The position numbers were made by a program, and so were the translations under genes. From Myxococcota bacterium (GTDB lineage: Bacteria; Myxococcota_C; UBA6777): a stretch of 59,005 nucleotides of DNA. Position 1 is the first letter of the stretch. Each line of letters begins with the position of its first letter. Shown here in pieces: positions 43,377 through 58,289 of this stretch. The DNA is taken from assembly GCA_023150835.1 (NCBI GenBank), contig JAKLKB010000112.1, positions 1 through 59,005 of the forward strand, read 5' to 3'. Below the pieces are notes generated by a model. The model saw nothing but the letters and a program-made list of their open reading frames with translations, was not told where the DNA came from and did no database searches.

Positions 43377-45194
43377 ATGAGTGGAGAAGCAAGGGTGAAG
43401 GAGATCGGCGAGCGCGTCAAGGAACAGAAAGGGGCAAAAAGGGTGCGAAGAAAGCTAGACAAACAACAAGTTGCGGAGATCTTTGCGGAGTGCGCGATGT
43501 TGTTGGAACTCAAGGGCGAGAATCCTTTTCGGATCCGATCTTTTGTGAACACAGCGCGCCAGTTGCGGGCGTTGGAGGGTGATGTGGGGGAGATGCTCGC
43601 GACGGGAGAGATCGCGCAGGTGAGCGGGATCGGAAAGGGGACGATCGAACGGTTGGAGGAGATCGCCAAAACAGGTACGTTGGCGGAGTATGAGGCATTA
43701 AAGCAAGCGTTTCCAGCGGGCCTTTTGGAGATGTTGAAGGTGCCGGGGTTGGGATCCAAAAAAGTGCGGGCGTTGTACGAGCGTTTGCAGATCAGCAGTT
43801 TGGGGGAATTGGAGTATGCTTGTCGAGAGAATCGTTTGTTGGCTTTGGAGGGATTTGGCGTAAAGACCCAAGAAAATATCTTAAAAGGGATCGATCACGT
43901 CAAGCGGTTTCAAGGCCGATTTTTGGTGAGTGTAGCGCGGCGTGTGGCGGAGCGTTTTTTGTTGGAGTTGCGCGGGTTGGTCGAAGTGGAGAGGGCGGAA
44001 GTTGCGGGGAGTTTGCGGCGTTGGAAAGAGACTGTCAAGGATGTGGATCTGGTGGTGGCGACTTGTGAGGCTACGAAAGTGATGGACTGGTTTGTGGGGC
44101 ATGAGTGGGTGGCCTCGGTGGTGGGGCATGGTCCGACCAAATCAAGTGTGGTGTTGGGCAATGGATTACAAGTGGATCTGCGGGCGGTTTCGCGAGAGCA
44201 ATACCCGTATGCGTTGATGCACTTTACGGGGAGCAAAGAACACAACACCGTGATGCGCGGAAGGGCGAAGGATCGGGGGATGAAGCTGAATGAGTACGGC
44301 CTGTTTCGGGGGGAAGAATTGGTGAGATGCGAAGACGAAGCGGCGATCTATCGTGCGTTGGATCTGTATGAGATCCCGCCGGAGATGCGAGAGGATCAGG
44401 GAGAGTTTGAGCGGGCTGTGGAGCCGTTGGCGACGTTGGTCACGCGGGAGTCGTTGCGTGGGGTGTTTCACGCGCATACTACAGAAAGCGATGGATCGGC
44501 GCGTTTGGAGGAGATGGCGGAGGCTTGTCGAGCCCGAGGTTGGTCTTACTTGGGAATAAGCGATCACAGCCAAAGTGCGCACTATGCGAATGGATTGACG
44601 GTGGAGCGCGTCTTGCGCCAACACGAAGAAGTGGAGGCGTTGAACCAGAAGTGGTCCGATTTTGTGATCTTGAAGGGGATCGAGTCGGATATCTTGGTGG
44701 ATGGGTCGTTGGATTATGGGGAGGATATCTTGGCGCGTTTCGATTTTGTGATCGCATCGGTACATAGCCATTTCAAGATGACAGAAGAGGCGATGACGGC
44801 TCGGATCATCAAAGCGATCGAGCATCCTGCCACAACGATGTTGGGCCATCCAACGGGGCGTTTGTTGTTGTCTCGTGAAGGCTACCCGTTGGAGATGACC
44901 CAGATCATCGACGCAGCGATCGCGCATGGTGTGATCATCGAGATGAACGCCAATCCTTATCGTTTGGATATCGATTGGCGATTTTTAGCGAAGGCGTGCG
45001 CACGTGGGTTGTTGGTAAGTATCAACCCAGATGCCCATAGCATCGAAGGTTTAGAGGATGTTGTATTTGGTGTAGGCAGCGCAAGGAAGGGGGGGTTGGT
45101 TCCTGCGCAGGTCTTCAATACATGGCCGCGAGAAGAAGTGCAGCGATGGTTGGTTGCGCGAAAAAGGCGCGCAATCGGCGAAGCGGACGCTTGA
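43377..45194 (+). CDS. polX: DNA polymerase/3'-5' exonuclease PolX with PHP domain
   Basis: 605 residues. An N-terminal helix-hairpin-helix 8-kDa-like region (about 25-110: QVSGIGKGTIERLEEI, KVPGLGSKKVRALYERL) precedes the family X polymerase palm, with carboxylates in VKDVDLVVAT and GLQVDLRAV. The C-terminal PHP phosphoesterase domain starts at about residue 360 (GVFHAHTTESDGS, ISDHSQSAHY, GIESDIL, ASVHSHF, GHPTGRL, INPDAHS) and carries the metal-binding His/Asp set of an active 3'-5' exonuclease. It works in base-excision and gap repair. The ribosome binding site is weak. Coding-strand composition is strongly G/T-rich. Confidence 0.93.
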   Translation: MSGEARVKEIGERVKEQKGAKRVRRKLDKQQVAEIFAECAMLLELKGENPFRIRSFVNTARQLRALEGDVGEMLATGEIAQVSGIGKGTIERLEEIAKTGTLAEYEALKQAFPAGLLEMLKVPGLGSKKVRALYERLQISSLGELEYACRENRLLALEGFGVKTQENILKGIDHVKRFQGRFLVSVARRVAERFLLELRGLVEVERAEVAGSLRRWKETVKDVDLVVATCEATKVMDWFVGHEWVASVVGHGPTKSSVVLGNGLQVDLRAVSREQYPYALMHFTGSKEHNTVMRGRAKDRGMKLNEYGLFRGEELVRCEDEAAIYRALDLYEIPPEMREDQGEFERAVEPLATLVTRESLRGVFHAHTTESDGSARLEEMAEACRARGWSYLGISDHSQSAHYANGLTVERVLRQHEEVEALNQKWSDFVILKGIESDILVDGSLDYGEDILARFDFVIASVHSHFKMTEEAMTARIIKAIEHPATTMLGHPTGRLLLSREGYPLEMTQIIDAAIAHGVIIEMNANPYRLDIDWRFLAKACARGLLVSINPDAHSIEGLEDVVFGVGSARKGGLVPAQVFNTWPREEVQRWLVARKRRAIGEADA

Positions 45195-45386: not shown

Positions 45387-47123
45387 TTAGCTGTGGGTGT
45401 TGCTGTTGACGTGGATGTGAGGGGACAGCGAATCATTTTGGTTGCGCAGTTCGATCACTTGATCGGCGCGTCCTTGGGTGAGGTAGGCGGTGAGATCCAC
45501 GCCAGCTTCTTTGAGTTTGGCGAGGTAGGCGACGTGTTGTTCGTACTGTCGGCGTTGGGCTTCTTGTTGTTGGAGGGTGTCTTGTTCGCGCTGTTGGCGT
45601 TCGCTTTCGTGTTGTTCTTGGAGGAGTTGGAGCTGTTGTTGGTGTTGTTTTTGTTGGATCGAGAGGTTGTGTTCTTCGCGCTTTTGTTGGAGTTCGAGAT
45701 CGTGCTGGTGCTGGTTGCGTTGTTGGAGTCGAGCGTTGGTGTTGCGTTCAAAGTCGCGTTTTTGCTTAAAGTCTGCGAGTTCTTGGGCTTGGTTTTCGGT
45801 TTCGCGTTCGAGTTTAAGTCGTGTGCGGGCTTCGATCGCTTGTTCGTGCATGGCTTGTAGCGCGAGGGTGGTGGAATAGCCGCGATAGACGATCTTGCGG
45901 ATGCGATAGCCGACTTGTTCGGCTCGATCGTTGAGTTGGCTGTAGCTTTCGAGTTGGTTGAGCAGTTCTGTGCGGGCTTTGAAATCCTCGAAGCTGTAGC
46001 GGCCAACGAGATCGATCACATCAGAAGAAGTCGCATTGATGAAATCGCCGATCGGATCGTGGGTTTCATCAAGCATCTTTTCGACGTTGATCATCTCAAA
46101 GAACAACATCAGTTTGATGGTCAACACAACATCATCGGCAGTTCGGACATCTTCGACGTCATGGTACATCTGATCGGGCATCAACCAGAGTTTTTGGAAC
46201 GTGAGTGCCCCGGGATATTTTTTGTAATCCGCTCCACGCGAGCCGTGCCAACTGAAGGTGTGGAGCCATTCACCGGGCTTGGGGACAAAAGAGGCCGGAC
46301 CCGTCACGATACGGCGCTTGACTTGGTTGATATCGCCGCTGAGATCCGAAGCGTACACCACGATGGCTTCTTTGGCGGCGATCTGAAGGGCCTCTTCTTT
46401 TTCGATGTTGGCGTGGATGCGGGGATCAAACCAGACCTTGACGGGACCGGCGATGTGTTCTTGCGAGCCGTCGCGTTTGCGAACGATCAAAAACTCTCCC
46501 GGATAGGCGGTGTATTGGGAAAGAACTTGGGTTTTCTTGCCCCACGACCAGACGCGCTGTGGACCGTCGATCAGCTCGCCGCGTCCGTTTTTGTCGGTAA
46601 GAAGAACGCGTTGTCCTTCGGGGATGGTATGAAAAAAAAGACCCATCTCGACCTCCATACGGTGGCTAAGGGCTGTGTTGTTGGATTTGGGAGCAGGAGG
46701 GAGGTGTCGTCCTGTATGCGGATCGATCGCGATATGCCGTCCTCCAGCGTTGTTTGCAAAAGGGGCGTCGTGTTGGCCTGCGGGAGCTGCGCGGAGATTG
46801 GGGAGGGCTTGGATGCCCACACGTGTCTGGTGGGCGCTTGCGTAATCGTAGCTCTCGTTTTCTTGGTTGAGGCGTTGGATCGCCGCGTATTCGTCCGCAC
46901 GCATCTGTTCAAACGGATTGGCCGCGCTCAACGACTGGACGCCGACAAGGGTATTGGGGCGGCGGGGAGCATTGTAGACGGCTTGTTGCGCTTGCATGAA
47001 ACCGTCTTCGTTGTAGGCGTTGTCGTTCCCGATGTTGCTTGTGAGGCTGCTTGAGGCGTGAGAAAGCGAATCGACAGCTTCTTGGAGGGCGCCTGCTTTT
47101 TTTAGCATGCGGTATTTGTTCAT
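45387..47123 (-). CDS. Major-vault-protein/SPFH-like coiled-coil protein
   Basis: 578 residues, no signal peptide or membrane span. Residues 1-155 look disordered. Residues about 160-292 hold three beta-type repeats built around GP: RGELIDGPQRVWSW, QEHIAGPVKVWFDP and RRIVTGPASFVPKPGEW. The last fits the GPxxxxPxPGE pattern of major vault protein repeats. Residues about 300-430 (LWLMPDQMYHDVEDVRTADD, LMLFFEMINVEKML, YSFEDFKARTELLNQL) resemble the MVP shoulder/SPFH domain. A long Gln/Glu/Arg coiled coil (428-535) and a C-terminal motif (LKEAGVDLTAYLTQ) follow. Repeats, then shoulder, then coiled-coil cap is the MVP order, in short form. GAGAGG precedes the ATG. Function unknown. Confidence 0.7.
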   Translation of the reverse strand: MNKYRMLKKAGALQEAVDSLSHASSSLTSNIGNDNAYNEDGFMQAQQAVYNAPRRPNTLVGVQSLSAANPFEQMRADEYAAIQRLNQENESYDYASAHQTRVGIQALPNLRAAPAGQHDAPFANNAGGRHIAIDPHTGRHLPPAPKSNNTALSHRMEVEMGLFFHTIPEGQRVLLTDKNGRGELIDGPQRVWSWGKKTQVLSQYTAYPGEFLIVRKRDGSQEHIAGPVKVWFDPRIHANIEKEEALQIAAKEAIVVYASDLSGDINQVKRRIVTGPASFVPKPGEWLHTFSWHGSRGADYKKYPGALTFQKLWLMPDQMYHDVEDVRTADDVVLTIKLMLFFEMINVEKMLDETHDPIGDFINATSSDVIDLVGRYSFEDFKARTELLNQLESYSQLNDRAEQVGYRIRKIVYRGYSTTLALQAMHEQAIEARTRLKLERETENQAQELADFKQKRDFERNTNARLQQRNQHQHDLELQQKREEHNLSIQQKQHQQQLQLLQEQHESERQQREQDTLQQQEAQRRQYEQHVAYLAKLKEAGVDLTAYLTQGRADQVIELRNQNDSLSPHIHVNSNTHS

Positions 47124-55289: not shown

Positions 55290-58289
55290 TTATGGCAGGG
55301 GTAAGGTGCGGTAGCGATCACGAAGCAAGGTTTGGCGCGAGTGGAGGGGGACAGGTTGGCCGTGGATCCAGATGCGGACGGGGCGGGAGGAAAGTTCGAG
55401 CGGATCGTTTTTCCATAGGACGATGTTGGCATAAGCGTTGGCGCGCAAAACGCCGTAATCTCGGATACCAAAGATCTCAAAGAAGTGGCGCGAGAGTCCC
55501 GCAAGAGCGGTGGCATGAGGGAGGCCGTGCGCAACCATGATGCCGACTTCTTGGAGGGTATTTCGGATAAAGTGCGCACGTTCGGGCGGAGTGAAGGCAA
55601 ATACCACACCCGCTTTGGCGAGCAGAGCGGCATTTTCAAAGCGGCTGTGAAGCGTATCGAAAGATCGAGGGAGATTGTTGGCCGAGCCGAGCAGTACGGG
55701 GATACGGGCTTTTGCAAGATCATCGGCGACCTTCCAACCTTCGGCAACTCCGCTCAACACAAGGCGGATGCGTTGGGCTTTTGCGAAACGGATAGCGCGT
55801 CGGATCTCTTCGGCTCGATGGAGGCTCAAGACCAGCGGGATCTGCCGACGCAAGACAAGGCCGAGGGCTTCGAGGTGGATGCGAGGCAGACTGAGTGTGC
55901 GGAGCTTTCCGAGGTTGTAGGCTGTTTTGTTGGCGTGATAAAAGCGTGCATCGTCGAGCGCTTCGCGTAGTTTGAGCCAAGCATGGGCCGTCGATCCGCG
56001 CCAACCACTTCCAAACCCCGCGTGGAGCGCAAGCGGAGTGTCATAGACGTGTGGCCCTTGTTTTCCGCCGAGGCTGATCAGCGCGGATTGGCCCGAGACA
56101 AGGCCGTTGATCGGAGCGATCTCGGCTTGCGTGATACCGCTGAGTCTTGCGACAGGCAATGTCACACTGCGCGGGTGGAAGCCTTCGCTCACTTGAAAGG
56201 CTGGCTTGATATCCAAAGGGCTGAGCATCTTGTCGTTTTGGGTGTTGGATTCGGCCATCACTTCGGTGAGTCCAAGCCCTGTTTGGGCCACCGCAAAGCC
56301 CGGCGTCACAAGGTAGTCCGATCCTTGAATCACTTTGCAGGAGCCCGCATAGCTCGAAAGATTCGGACCTACCGCCACGATCTGCTTTCCTCGCCACACC
56401 ACGTCCCCACGCGATGCAGGCGTCAACATGGTGTGAAGCATGGCTTGGCGGATCATCACACAAGGCGTTTTCGTACTGGCCTCTGTTTGTGTATGAGAGG
56501 CCGAACGCACGGATGCTTGGGAGGCTGAACGCGCCGATGCCTTGGCGTCGAGATGAGGCCGCTGCACCGTGTTGATCTCGGTCTGTGGGCGTTCTGTGGT
56601 GGTGTTGGGTGCGGGGTGTTCTGTGGTGGTGTTTGGTGCGGGACGCTCCGTTTGCGCCGTCGAAAGTCTTTGTGATGGGGAGGGCCTTTGTAGTTGGGGT
56701 CGCATCCGAGAAGGCGTTTCGCTGGTTTCGGAGGATGCGGGCTTTTGCGTGCGCAAGGGGCCGTTGGAAGGGATGGGGGAGGTTGGAAGAGAGGTGGTGG
56801 ATGGGTAGATCGCGGTGTCGTCGGTGAGACCGATCTCGAAATCGGTCATCGGACGGGGCTTTTGTCGATCATAGACGATCTGACCGTCGATGAACACATT
56901 CGAGGTGCGGGTATAAACACGCAATGGATGGCCGTCCCATATCGTGATATCGGCGTATTTTCCGACCTCAAGTGTGCCGACATACGCATCGATGCCCAAA
57001 GCCCACGCAGGATTGCGCGTCACCCAACGGATGGCCTCGTCTTCGCTGAGCTTCAGTCCCATCGCAAGCCCCCGATAATAGGCTTTGGCGGCTTCTTGGT
57101 TGAGCCGCTGGATACCCACCGAAGAATCTGAGTGGATGATCGCACGTCCCCCCGCAGCTGCGATCAACGGGGCATTTTCCTCGATGGTGTCAAAGGCTTC
57201 CATCTTAAAACCCCACCAATCGGCCCACAACGATGCAGCGATCTGCTCTTTCGCAAGGATATCTCGGATCTTGTAAGCTTCGATCGCGTGATGAAACGAG
57301 CGGATGCGAAAACCAAACTCACCCGCAAGAGCGATCATCCAACGCATCTCATCGGCGCGATAACAGTGGATATGCACAAGATGTTTGCCCTCGATGACGC
57401 CTTGAAGCACCTCAAGGTTGAGATCGCGTGTGGGGGCTTGGGGAGGCTTGGGCGGATCTGTCGGTGGCTTGGGCGAAATCGGAGCCGATGTGGATGCCGC
57501 AGAAGTCGGTGCCTTGGGGGTTTTAGACGCATCGGTGTTTTTGGGGGATGGCGTTTGGGCGGAGCTTGCAGCGGTGGCCTTCGTTGCGTGTTTTTTGTTC
57601 CATCTCGCGAGGTCGCGTTGGTAGTCGTCCCAACGCTGCTTGTATTCGCGGGCTTGTTGGAAGGCCATGCGCATCAGGGCGATATTGCCCATCCGTGTGC
57701 GGGTTTGGTTGCGATGCACGCGCTTGGGATTTTCACCGCATGCCATCTTGACGCCGTAAGGTGCGAGCGGAAAACGCATCTCTTGAACCGTCCGTTTCAA
57801 GCGCAAACGCACGATCAAGCTGCGCCCACCGATTAAGTTGGCCGAACCCGGCAAGATCTGAGCGGTAGTGGTTCCACCTTCAACTGCACGTGGGATCGCG
57901 GGATCTTGGGGCCAAAAGGCGTGTTCTGCGCTTGCATAAGCCGTGATGGCCTTGACCATCTCGTTGCCATCCGCGTGCGCAGAAGCCCAAGGGATCGGAT
58001 ACACCCCGATATGCGAATGGGTGTCGATCAAGCCCGGTGTAAGATGTTTTCCGCGAACGTCCAAGACCATCGCGCCATTTGCCGAAAGATGCCGACCGAT
58101 CGCCGCGATCTTTCCGTCGCGCACAAGCAGATCGTGATCCTTCAAGATCGCTCCTGTCGCCGTCCACAGCGTCCCTCCGCGCAACAGCAGATCTCGCCGA
58201 AGAGGCGCTGCTTCAAGAGGCTTCGTCGTCTGGTCGAGCCACACAAGTGACAAACTACACCACAGAAACAATCTGAAACGTCGTATCAT
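55290..58289 (-). CDS. Exported tandem amidohydrolase protein
   Basis: 999 residues with a signal peptide (LFLWCSLSLVWLDQT, cleavage near LEAAP). The first amidohydrolase domain (about 30-500) has LTPGLIDTHSHIG (HxH), GGTTTAQILPGSANLIGG, HIHCYRADE, SFHHAIEAYK and HSDSSVG, the metal-ligand set. It is interrupted by a low-complexity Ala/Pro/Thr insert (about 225-290). A second Pro/Thr/Ser linker (about 500-620) leads to a second amidohydrolase-type domain (about 625-999, ending NAYANIVLWKNDPLELSS). In the second domain the HxH position reads TPGFAVAQTGLGL, so it is probably non-catalytic. Related imidazolonepropionase-like pairs exist as separate proteins. Substrate unknown. Confidence 0.88.
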   Translation of the reverse strand: MIRRFRLFLWCSLSLVWLDQTTKPLEAAPLRRDLLLRGGTLWTATGAILKDHDLLVRDGKIAAIGRHLSANGAMVLDVRGKHLTPGLIDTHSHIGVYPIPWASAHADGNEMVKAITAYASAEHAFWPQDPAIPRAVEGGTTTAQILPGSANLIGGRSLIVRLRLKRTVQEMRFPLAPYGVKMACGENPKRVHRNQTRTRMGNIALMRMAFQQAREYKQRWDDYQRDLARWNKKHATKATAASSAQTPSPKNTDASKTPKAPTSAASTSAPISPKPPTDPPKPPQAPTRDLNLEVLQGVIEGKHLVHIHCYRADEMRWMIALAGEFGFRIRSFHHAIEAYKIRDILAKEQIAASLWADWWGFKMEAFDTIEENAPLIAAAGGRAIIHSDSSVGIQRLNQEAAKAYYRGLAMGLKLSEDEAIRWVTRNPAWALGIDAYVGTLEVGKYADITIWDGHPLRVYTRTSNVFIDGQIVYDRQKPRPMTDFEIGLTDDTAIYPSTTSLPTSPIPSNGPLRTQKPASSETSETPSRMRPQLQRPSPSQRLSTAQTERPAPNTTTEHPAPNTTTERPQTEINTVQRPHLDAKASARSASQASVRSASHTQTEASTKTPCVMIRQAMLHTMLTPASRGDVVWRGKQIVAVGPNLSSYAGSCKVIQGSDYLVTPGFAVAQTGLGLTEVMAESNTQNDKMLSPLDIKPAFQVSEGFHPRSVTLPVARLSGITQAEIAPINGLVSGQSALISLGGKQGPHVYDTPLALHAGFGSGWRGSTAHAWLKLREALDDARFYHANKTAYNLGKLRTLSLPRIHLEALGLVLRRQIPLVLSLHRAEEIRRAIRFAKAQRIRLVLSGVAEGWKVADDLAKARIPVLLGSANNLPRSFDTLHSRFENAALLAKAGVVFAFTPPERAHFIRNTLQEVGIMVAHGLPHATALAGLSRHFFEIFGIRDYGVLRANAYANIVLWKNDPLELSSRPVRIWIHGQPVPLHSRQTLLRDRYRTLPLP

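What the first reader, a model, noticed from the sequence alone, without database searches (positions are those of the whole stretch)
45387..47123. A soluble bacterial protein with the domain order of the major vault protein
Three GP-centred beta repeats, an SPFH/shoulder-like domain and a long coiled coil occur in the order found in eukaryotic MVP, but in 578 residues and behind a 155-residue disordered head. Eukaryotic MVP builds the 13-MDa vault shell; short bacterial versions would be candidates for a smaller self-assembling cage or ring. Seen: the repeats, the absence of membrane segments, the coiled coil. Inference: shared fold and assembly.
Basis: partly seen in the sequence, partly recalled or inferred. 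Interest (0 to 1): 0.7.

Follow-up and report, generated by a model that had tools for sequence, protein, structure and literature searches.

The report
Short bacterial relative of vault protein
This bacterial gene encodes a small protein predicted to share the fold of the last third of the repeat barrel, the shoulder and the cap helix of the protein that builds the giant eukaryotic vault, so it could form a small cage or dome and is relevant to where vaults came from.

Summary
ORF 45387-47123 (-) is a 578-aa soluble protein with a disordered head, three invariant GP-centred beta repeats, an SPFH/shoulder domain and a ~120-residue helix. Profile comparison ties the repeats to MVP (P 90 versus 1.4 for SPFH and 0.4 reversed). 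The shoulder sequence is closer to canonical SPFH proteins and to another short bacterial MVP-like protein than to MVP itself. The protein is not an MVP: repeats R1-R6 and the waist contact are absent, and it scores below the MVP and Band_7 cut-offs. It belongs to an apparently undescribed family in Planctomycetota and Myxococcota. Twenty-three of 36 members carry an MshEN domain in the head. In Myxococcota all 8 sampled carriers also encode a full-length MVP, as does the window genome; none of 9 sampled planctomycete carriers does. I infer an open, half-vault-like ring or dome; assembly and cellular role were not tested. The 'coiled coil' is only a predicted long helix.

The parts
45387..47123 (-). 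whole CDS, 578 aa, short vault-like protein (stop codon included)
   Evidence: start supported by conserved N-terminus in 36 homologues
47076..47123 (-). conserved N-terminal peptide, residues 1-16 (MNKYRMLKKAGALQEA)
   Evidence: not found at any other N-terminus of the genome
46653..47075 (-). mostly disordered head, residues 17-157; 23 of 36 homologues carry an MshEN domain (PF05157) in this region
   Evidence: pLDDT mostly below 50; Pfam counts
46500..46646 (-). beta repeat A, residues 160-208, GP at 187-188 (MVP-specific part)
46374..46499 (-). beta repeat B, residues 209-250, GP at 226-227 (MVP-specific part)
46179..46373 (-). beta repeat C, residues 251-315, GP at 275-276; structurally also matched by the first part of SPFH proteins
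45867..46178 (-). shoulder / SPFH domain, residues 316-419
   Evidence: Z 13.5, rmsd 1.9 over 109 residues to stomatin SPFH 4fvg; hhalign to SPFH 95.7 and to short MVP-like 94.7
45507..45866 (-). long helix, residues 420-539, counterpart of the MVP cap helix
   Evidence: AlphaFold helix 420-539; aligned with MVP up to residue 771
45390..45506 (-). conserved C-terminal tail, residues 540-578 (GVDLTAYLTQGRADQVIELR...PHIHV), low model confidence

Best explanation
A soluble, short relative of major vault protein: three MVP-type repeats (equivalent to R7-R9), an SPFH-like shoulder and a cap-type helix. Shown computationally: fold, domain order, homology and family conservation. Inferred: subunits pack side by side through repeat, shoulder and helix, as in MVP and SPFH rings, into an open ring or dome. 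With no R1 waist interface, two halves would not close into a barrel. The N-terminal head (disordered here, MshEN-bearing in planctomycetes) would then lie at the open rim and dock the half-shell on a partner. The most likely role is a cytosolic half-shell scaffold or holder; partner and cargo are unknown.
For: Foldseek top 12 hits are all MVP, E down to 3e-14. VIA-align: model 164-543 on MVP 323-771, Z 15-16, 343-370 residues; SPFH proteins score 10.7-13.7, most of the longer ones aligned only from about residue 245. Reproduced on the Gemmata homologue, Z about 15. hhalign: repeats to MVP P 90.2 over 117 columns, SPFH 1.4, reversed 0.4; repeats plus shoulder to the short MVP-like L061 P 96 over 241 columns; reversed at most 2.8. 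Direct BLASTP to L061 E 6e-8. The protein is the best sub-threshold MVP_shoulder hit in several carrier genomes. Published vault work finds more lateral contacts in the helix-cap (144 residues) than in repeats plus shoulder (132), fewer along R1-R6, and 39-mer half vaults (PMC13347060), so a protein lacking R1-R6 could still assemble; SPFH complexes form half cages (PMC13100048).
Against: No oligomer prediction or experiment. Below Pfam cut-offs for MVP_shoulder (12.7 versus 25 bits) and Band_7. The shoulder profile alone does not match MVP (P 1.2). The helix is more polar (68% QEKRHDN) than bacterial MVP cap helices (45-53%), which could mean different packing. rmsd to MVP is large (6-8 A), presumably because the long chain bends.
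Confidence: 0.6

Rival explanations
1. Accessory vault subunit: in Myxococcota and the window lineage it co-assembles with, caps or loads the full-length MVP vault made by the same cell.
For: In 282 sampled Myxococcota genomes 8 have this protein, 23 have MVP, and all 8 have both (hypergeometric 5e-10, still 5e-4 if only three independent events are assumed). The window genome, a congener and G003 have both; five Nannocystis genomes have both.
Against: None of 9 carriers in 294 sampled Planctomycetota has MVP, and the 6 with MVP lack it. G004 and the MAG behind L031 have it without detected MVP, though MAGs may be incomplete. The genes are on different contigs. Shared ancestry and large genomes were not corrected for.
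Confidence: 0.2
2. A soluble canonical SPFH scaffold whose extra N-terminal beta repeats are an independent elaboration, without particular kinship to vaults.
For: The shoulder sequence is as close to SPFH proteins (P 95.7) as to any MVP-like protein, and does not match the MVP profile directly. The first unbiased protein search returned Band_7 proteins as its weak hits.
Against: The repeats match MVP repeats by sequence profile (P 90) and not SPFH (1.4). Structural alignment to MVP runs without a break over repeats, shoulder and helix and outscores SPFH.
Confidence: 0.13
3. A non-assembling regulatory adaptor: the head (MshEN in planctomycetes) senses or binds a pilus/secretion-type partner, and the rest is a small oligomer.
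For: MshEN in 23 of 36 members, one clade; MshEN fold confirmed, Z 11.9 to MshE 5htl. Conserved terminal peptides.
Against: Only residues 28-104 are matched, to MshE 66-145; the upstream helices that hold the c-di-GMP motifs (from memory) have no counterpart, so ligand binding is not indicated. The window protein and the Nannocystis members lack the domain. The SPFH/MVP core is known elsewhere only in large oligomers.
Confidence: 0.07

Closest known systems
Major vault protein (MVP; PF11978 shoulder, PF01505/PF17795 repeats), eukaryotic and bacterial
   Same: Order of repeats, shoulder and cap helix; contiguous structural match to MVP 323-771; no membrane anchor; repeats match by sequence profile
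   Different: Three repeats, not nine; no R1-R6 or waist interface; shoulder sequence nearer to SPFH; extra disordered or MshEN head; different conserved C-terminal tail; below Pfam cut-offs
SPFH/Band 7 proteins (stomatin, prohibitin, flotillin, HflK/C, QmcA)
   Same: SPFH domain followed by a long helix; 1.9 A match to the stomatin SPFH domain; expected to form a half cage
   Different: No transmembrane segment found; two extra MVP-type repeats in front; below the Band_7 cut-off
Short bacterial MVP-like protein (L061, 489 aa; L086)
   Same: GP repeats plus MVP/SPFH shoulder plus helix without the full MVP length; hhalign P 96, BLASTP 6e-8
   Different: More repeats in L061; no conserved N-terminal peptide or MshEN; itself detected by Pfam as Band_7, with sub-threshold Vault_3 and MVP_shoulder
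MshEN domain of PilB/GspE/MshE ATPases
   Same: Present in the head of the planctomycete members (E down to 6.6e-19)
   Different: Absent from the window protein; fused to a vault-like core, not an ATPase; upstream helices of MshE not matched

Membership tests
Major vault protein | repeats-shoulder-cap helix order and fold | tested here: met
   model 164-543 on MVP 323-771, Z 15-16; second homologue Z about 15
Major vault protein | MVP-type repeat sequence | tested here: met
   hhalign P 90.2 over 117 columns, SPFH 1.4, reversed 0.4
Major vault protein | MVP_shoulder profile (PF11978) over curated cut-off | tested here: not met
   12.7 bits versus 25; 3 of 36 members at E 0.1 or better
Major vault protein | nine repeats R1-R9 with R1 waist contact | tested here: not met
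   three repeats only; head disordered or MshEN
Major vault protein | C-terminal cap loop/ring | tested here: inconclusive
   residues 540-578 conserved but pLDDT about 43
Major vault protein | 39-mer half shell / 78-mer barrel | not testable with these tools
   no multimer prediction available
SPFH / Band 7 | SPFH domain fold | tested here: met
   Z 13.5, rmsd 1.9 over 109 residues to 4fvg; hhalign 95.7
SPFH / Band 7 | Band_7 profile (PF01145) over curated cut-off | tested here: not met
   no hit for the window protein; 4 of 36 members, best E 0.0091
SPFH / Band 7 | membrane anchor before the SPFH domain | tested here: not met
   no hydrophobic segment, maximum KD19 1.35; lipid or amphipathic anchors not tested
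SPFH / Band 7 | ring or half-cage oligomer | not testable with these tools
   no multimer prediction or experiment available
MshEN-domain proteins | MshEN domain (PF05157) | tested here: not met
   met in 23 of 36 homologues but not in the window protein

The most novel reading that the evidence does not exclude
The family is a living intermediate between SPFH half cages and the closed vault (MVP-type repeats joined to a still SPFH-like shoulder, soluble, without the waist interface). It would build a natural bacterial half-vault, giving a route by which vaults arose from bacterial SPFH cages.
Probability: 0.3. Interest if true: 0.85.

Novelty: new variant of a known kind. Interest (0 to 1): 0.62.

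Why it matters
Reviews call the prokaryotic origin of MVP unresolved (PMC7916137), papers still state that vaults are absent from prokaryotes (PMC9778704), and MVP repeats are described as unique to the vault (PMC13100048). A conserved bacterial family with three such repeats on an SPFH-like shoulder, found beside full-length MVP in Myxococcota and alone in culturable planctomycetes, makes both the origin and the minimal assembly unit of vaults testable. It could also provide a smaller protein cage.

Tried and rejected
Single-protein Pfam, NCBIfam and PHROGs: only a weak RNR_inhib hit (19.9 bits, cut-off 23) and chance-level hits. PDB by sequence: angiotensin-converting enzyme at E 0.12, judged chance. 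Viral contigs: no relative. Plasmids: none. Gene neighbourhoods: no recurring partner beyond synteny among related planctomycetes; antisense frames of the gene itself fill the top clusters; in the window the gene stands alone, converging on PolX. Other proteins with the N-terminal GALQE peptide: none at an N-terminus. Helix periodicity: uninformative. A first enlarged MVP alignment contained an antisense frame and gave false negatives for MVP; rebuilt correctly (the MVP rows are void, its SPFH and L061 rows stand). Papers: none with MshEN and SPFH together, none found on planctomycete or Nannocystis vault proteins. The ADP-ribose pocket of the MVP shoulder was not mapped because the describing paper is not held.

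Full report
What is there. The ORF at 45387-47123 on the minus strand encodes 578 residues. It stands alone: PolX (43377-45194, +) converges on it from downstream, and no same-strand gene lies directly upstream. The genome is a 7.6-Mb assembly (G000) whose phylum is represented by only five held genomes; the gene is present in four of them.

Family. A scan of 84,980 species genomes found 39 loci in Planctomycetota (Gemmata, Zavarzinella, Limnoglobus, Singulisphaera and others), Nannocystis, and MAGs labelled Myxococcota, Deltaproteobacteria or Proteobacteria. Thirty-six aligned members share the core at 39-56% identity to the window protein, with invariant GP pairs in three repeats and nearly invariant stretches such as PGEWLHTF.WH, MPDQMYHDV and DPIGDF. 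Two short elements outside the core are also conserved: M..Y......GALQE at the N-terminus and GVDLTAYLTQGRADQVIELR...PH.H at the C-terminus. In 23 members, all planctomycete or unassigned, the head contains an MshEN domain (best E 6.6e-19); these 23 form one side of a single branch (support 99/94), so one gain or one loss suffices. No Pfam or NCBIfam family covers the core of the window protein.

Fold. AlphaFold2 with the 36-row alignment gave a confident core, mostly pLDDT 80-97 over residues 160-460. The top 12 Foldseek hits in the PDB are all MVP (E 3e-14 to 1.5e-10), followed by stomatin, flotillin, HflK/C and prohibitin. Re-alignment places residues 164-543 on MVP 323-771 with Z 15-16 over 343-370 residues; SPFH proteins reach Z 10.7-13.7, most of the longer ones from about residue 245. 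So repeats A and B are matched only in MVP among the rows listed, whereas repeat C and the shoulder are shared with SPFH proteins. A second model, of the Gemmata homologue L029, repeats the result (Z about 15) and shows a folded MshEN domain at 28-104 (Z 11.9 to MshE), joined to the core by a roughly 90-residue disordered linker.

Sequence test. Profile-profile comparison with reversed controls separates the halves. Repeats 158-310 match bacterial MVP repeats at P 90.2 (E 1.5e-6, 117 columns) and SPFH at 1.4. The shoulder 300-440 matches SPFH at 95.7 and the short MVP-like L061 at 94.7, but MVP directly at only 1.2. Repeats plus shoulder match L061 over 241 columns at P 96. L061 itself hits Band_7 (4e-8), Vault_3 (1e-4) and MVP_shoulder (2e-4) and aligns with MVP at P 96.5, so it bridges the two. 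Reversed profiles never exceed 2.8. These values come from small template alignments and are used comparatively.

Relation to full-length MVP. The same genome encodes a full-length MVP (MVP_shoulder 9e-19, 1024-aa frame; Vault_3 also hit). In an even sample of 282 Myxococcota, 23 have MVP and 8 have this protein, all 8 within the 23 (hypergeometric 5e-10, not corrected for phylogeny or genome size). In 294 Planctomycetota, 6 have MVP and 9 have this protein with no overlap (the remaining hits are MshEN-only matches). So the protein does not need MVP, but in Myxococcota it is nearly confined to MVP-bearing genomes.

Mechanism. Shown computationally: homology, domain order and predicted fold. 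Inferred: assembly. In MVP, 144 residues of the helix-cap and 132 of repeats plus shoulder make lateral contacts, R1-R6 make fewer, and half vaults exist (PMC13347060); SPFH relatives form half cages (PMC13100048). A protein that keeps the R7-R9/shoulder/helix part and lacks the waist would therefore be expected to form an open ring or dome with its N-terminal head at the rim. I give 0.6 to this picture as a whole and about 0.9 to the architecture alone. Cargo, partner and physiological role are unknown, and no operon points to one.

Novelty. Bacterial homologues of MVP have been reported (PMC7916137). I found no paper on this short family or on an MshEN-SPFH/vault fusion in the held library; absence from that library is not proof of absence. 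I rate it a new variant of a known kind.

Noticed in passing
L106:9402-12302 (own genome, contig C216): A full-length MVP (MVP_shoulder, Vault_3) in the same genome; an NfeD plus Band_7 gene pair lies about 4 kb upstream (L106:3432-5716).
   Followed up: partly
L061:1039-2505 (-), L086: A different short MVP-like protein (489 aa) with repeats plus shoulder detectable by Pfam, apparently another short vault-like family.
   Followed up: partly
Myxococcota and Planctomycetota genome samples: MVP occurs in 23 of 282 Myxococcota and 6 of 294 Planctomycetota, although papers state vaults are absent from prokaryotes; several Nannocystis genomes carry two MVP genes.
   Followed up: partly
G544, G487, G384, G386: Planctomycete relatives in open frames of 422-426 aa that lack the whole head: a headless subgroup.
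   Followed up: no
window 55290-58289 (-): A 999-aa protein with amidohydrolase matches in its first half and a second half without a family.
   Followed up: no
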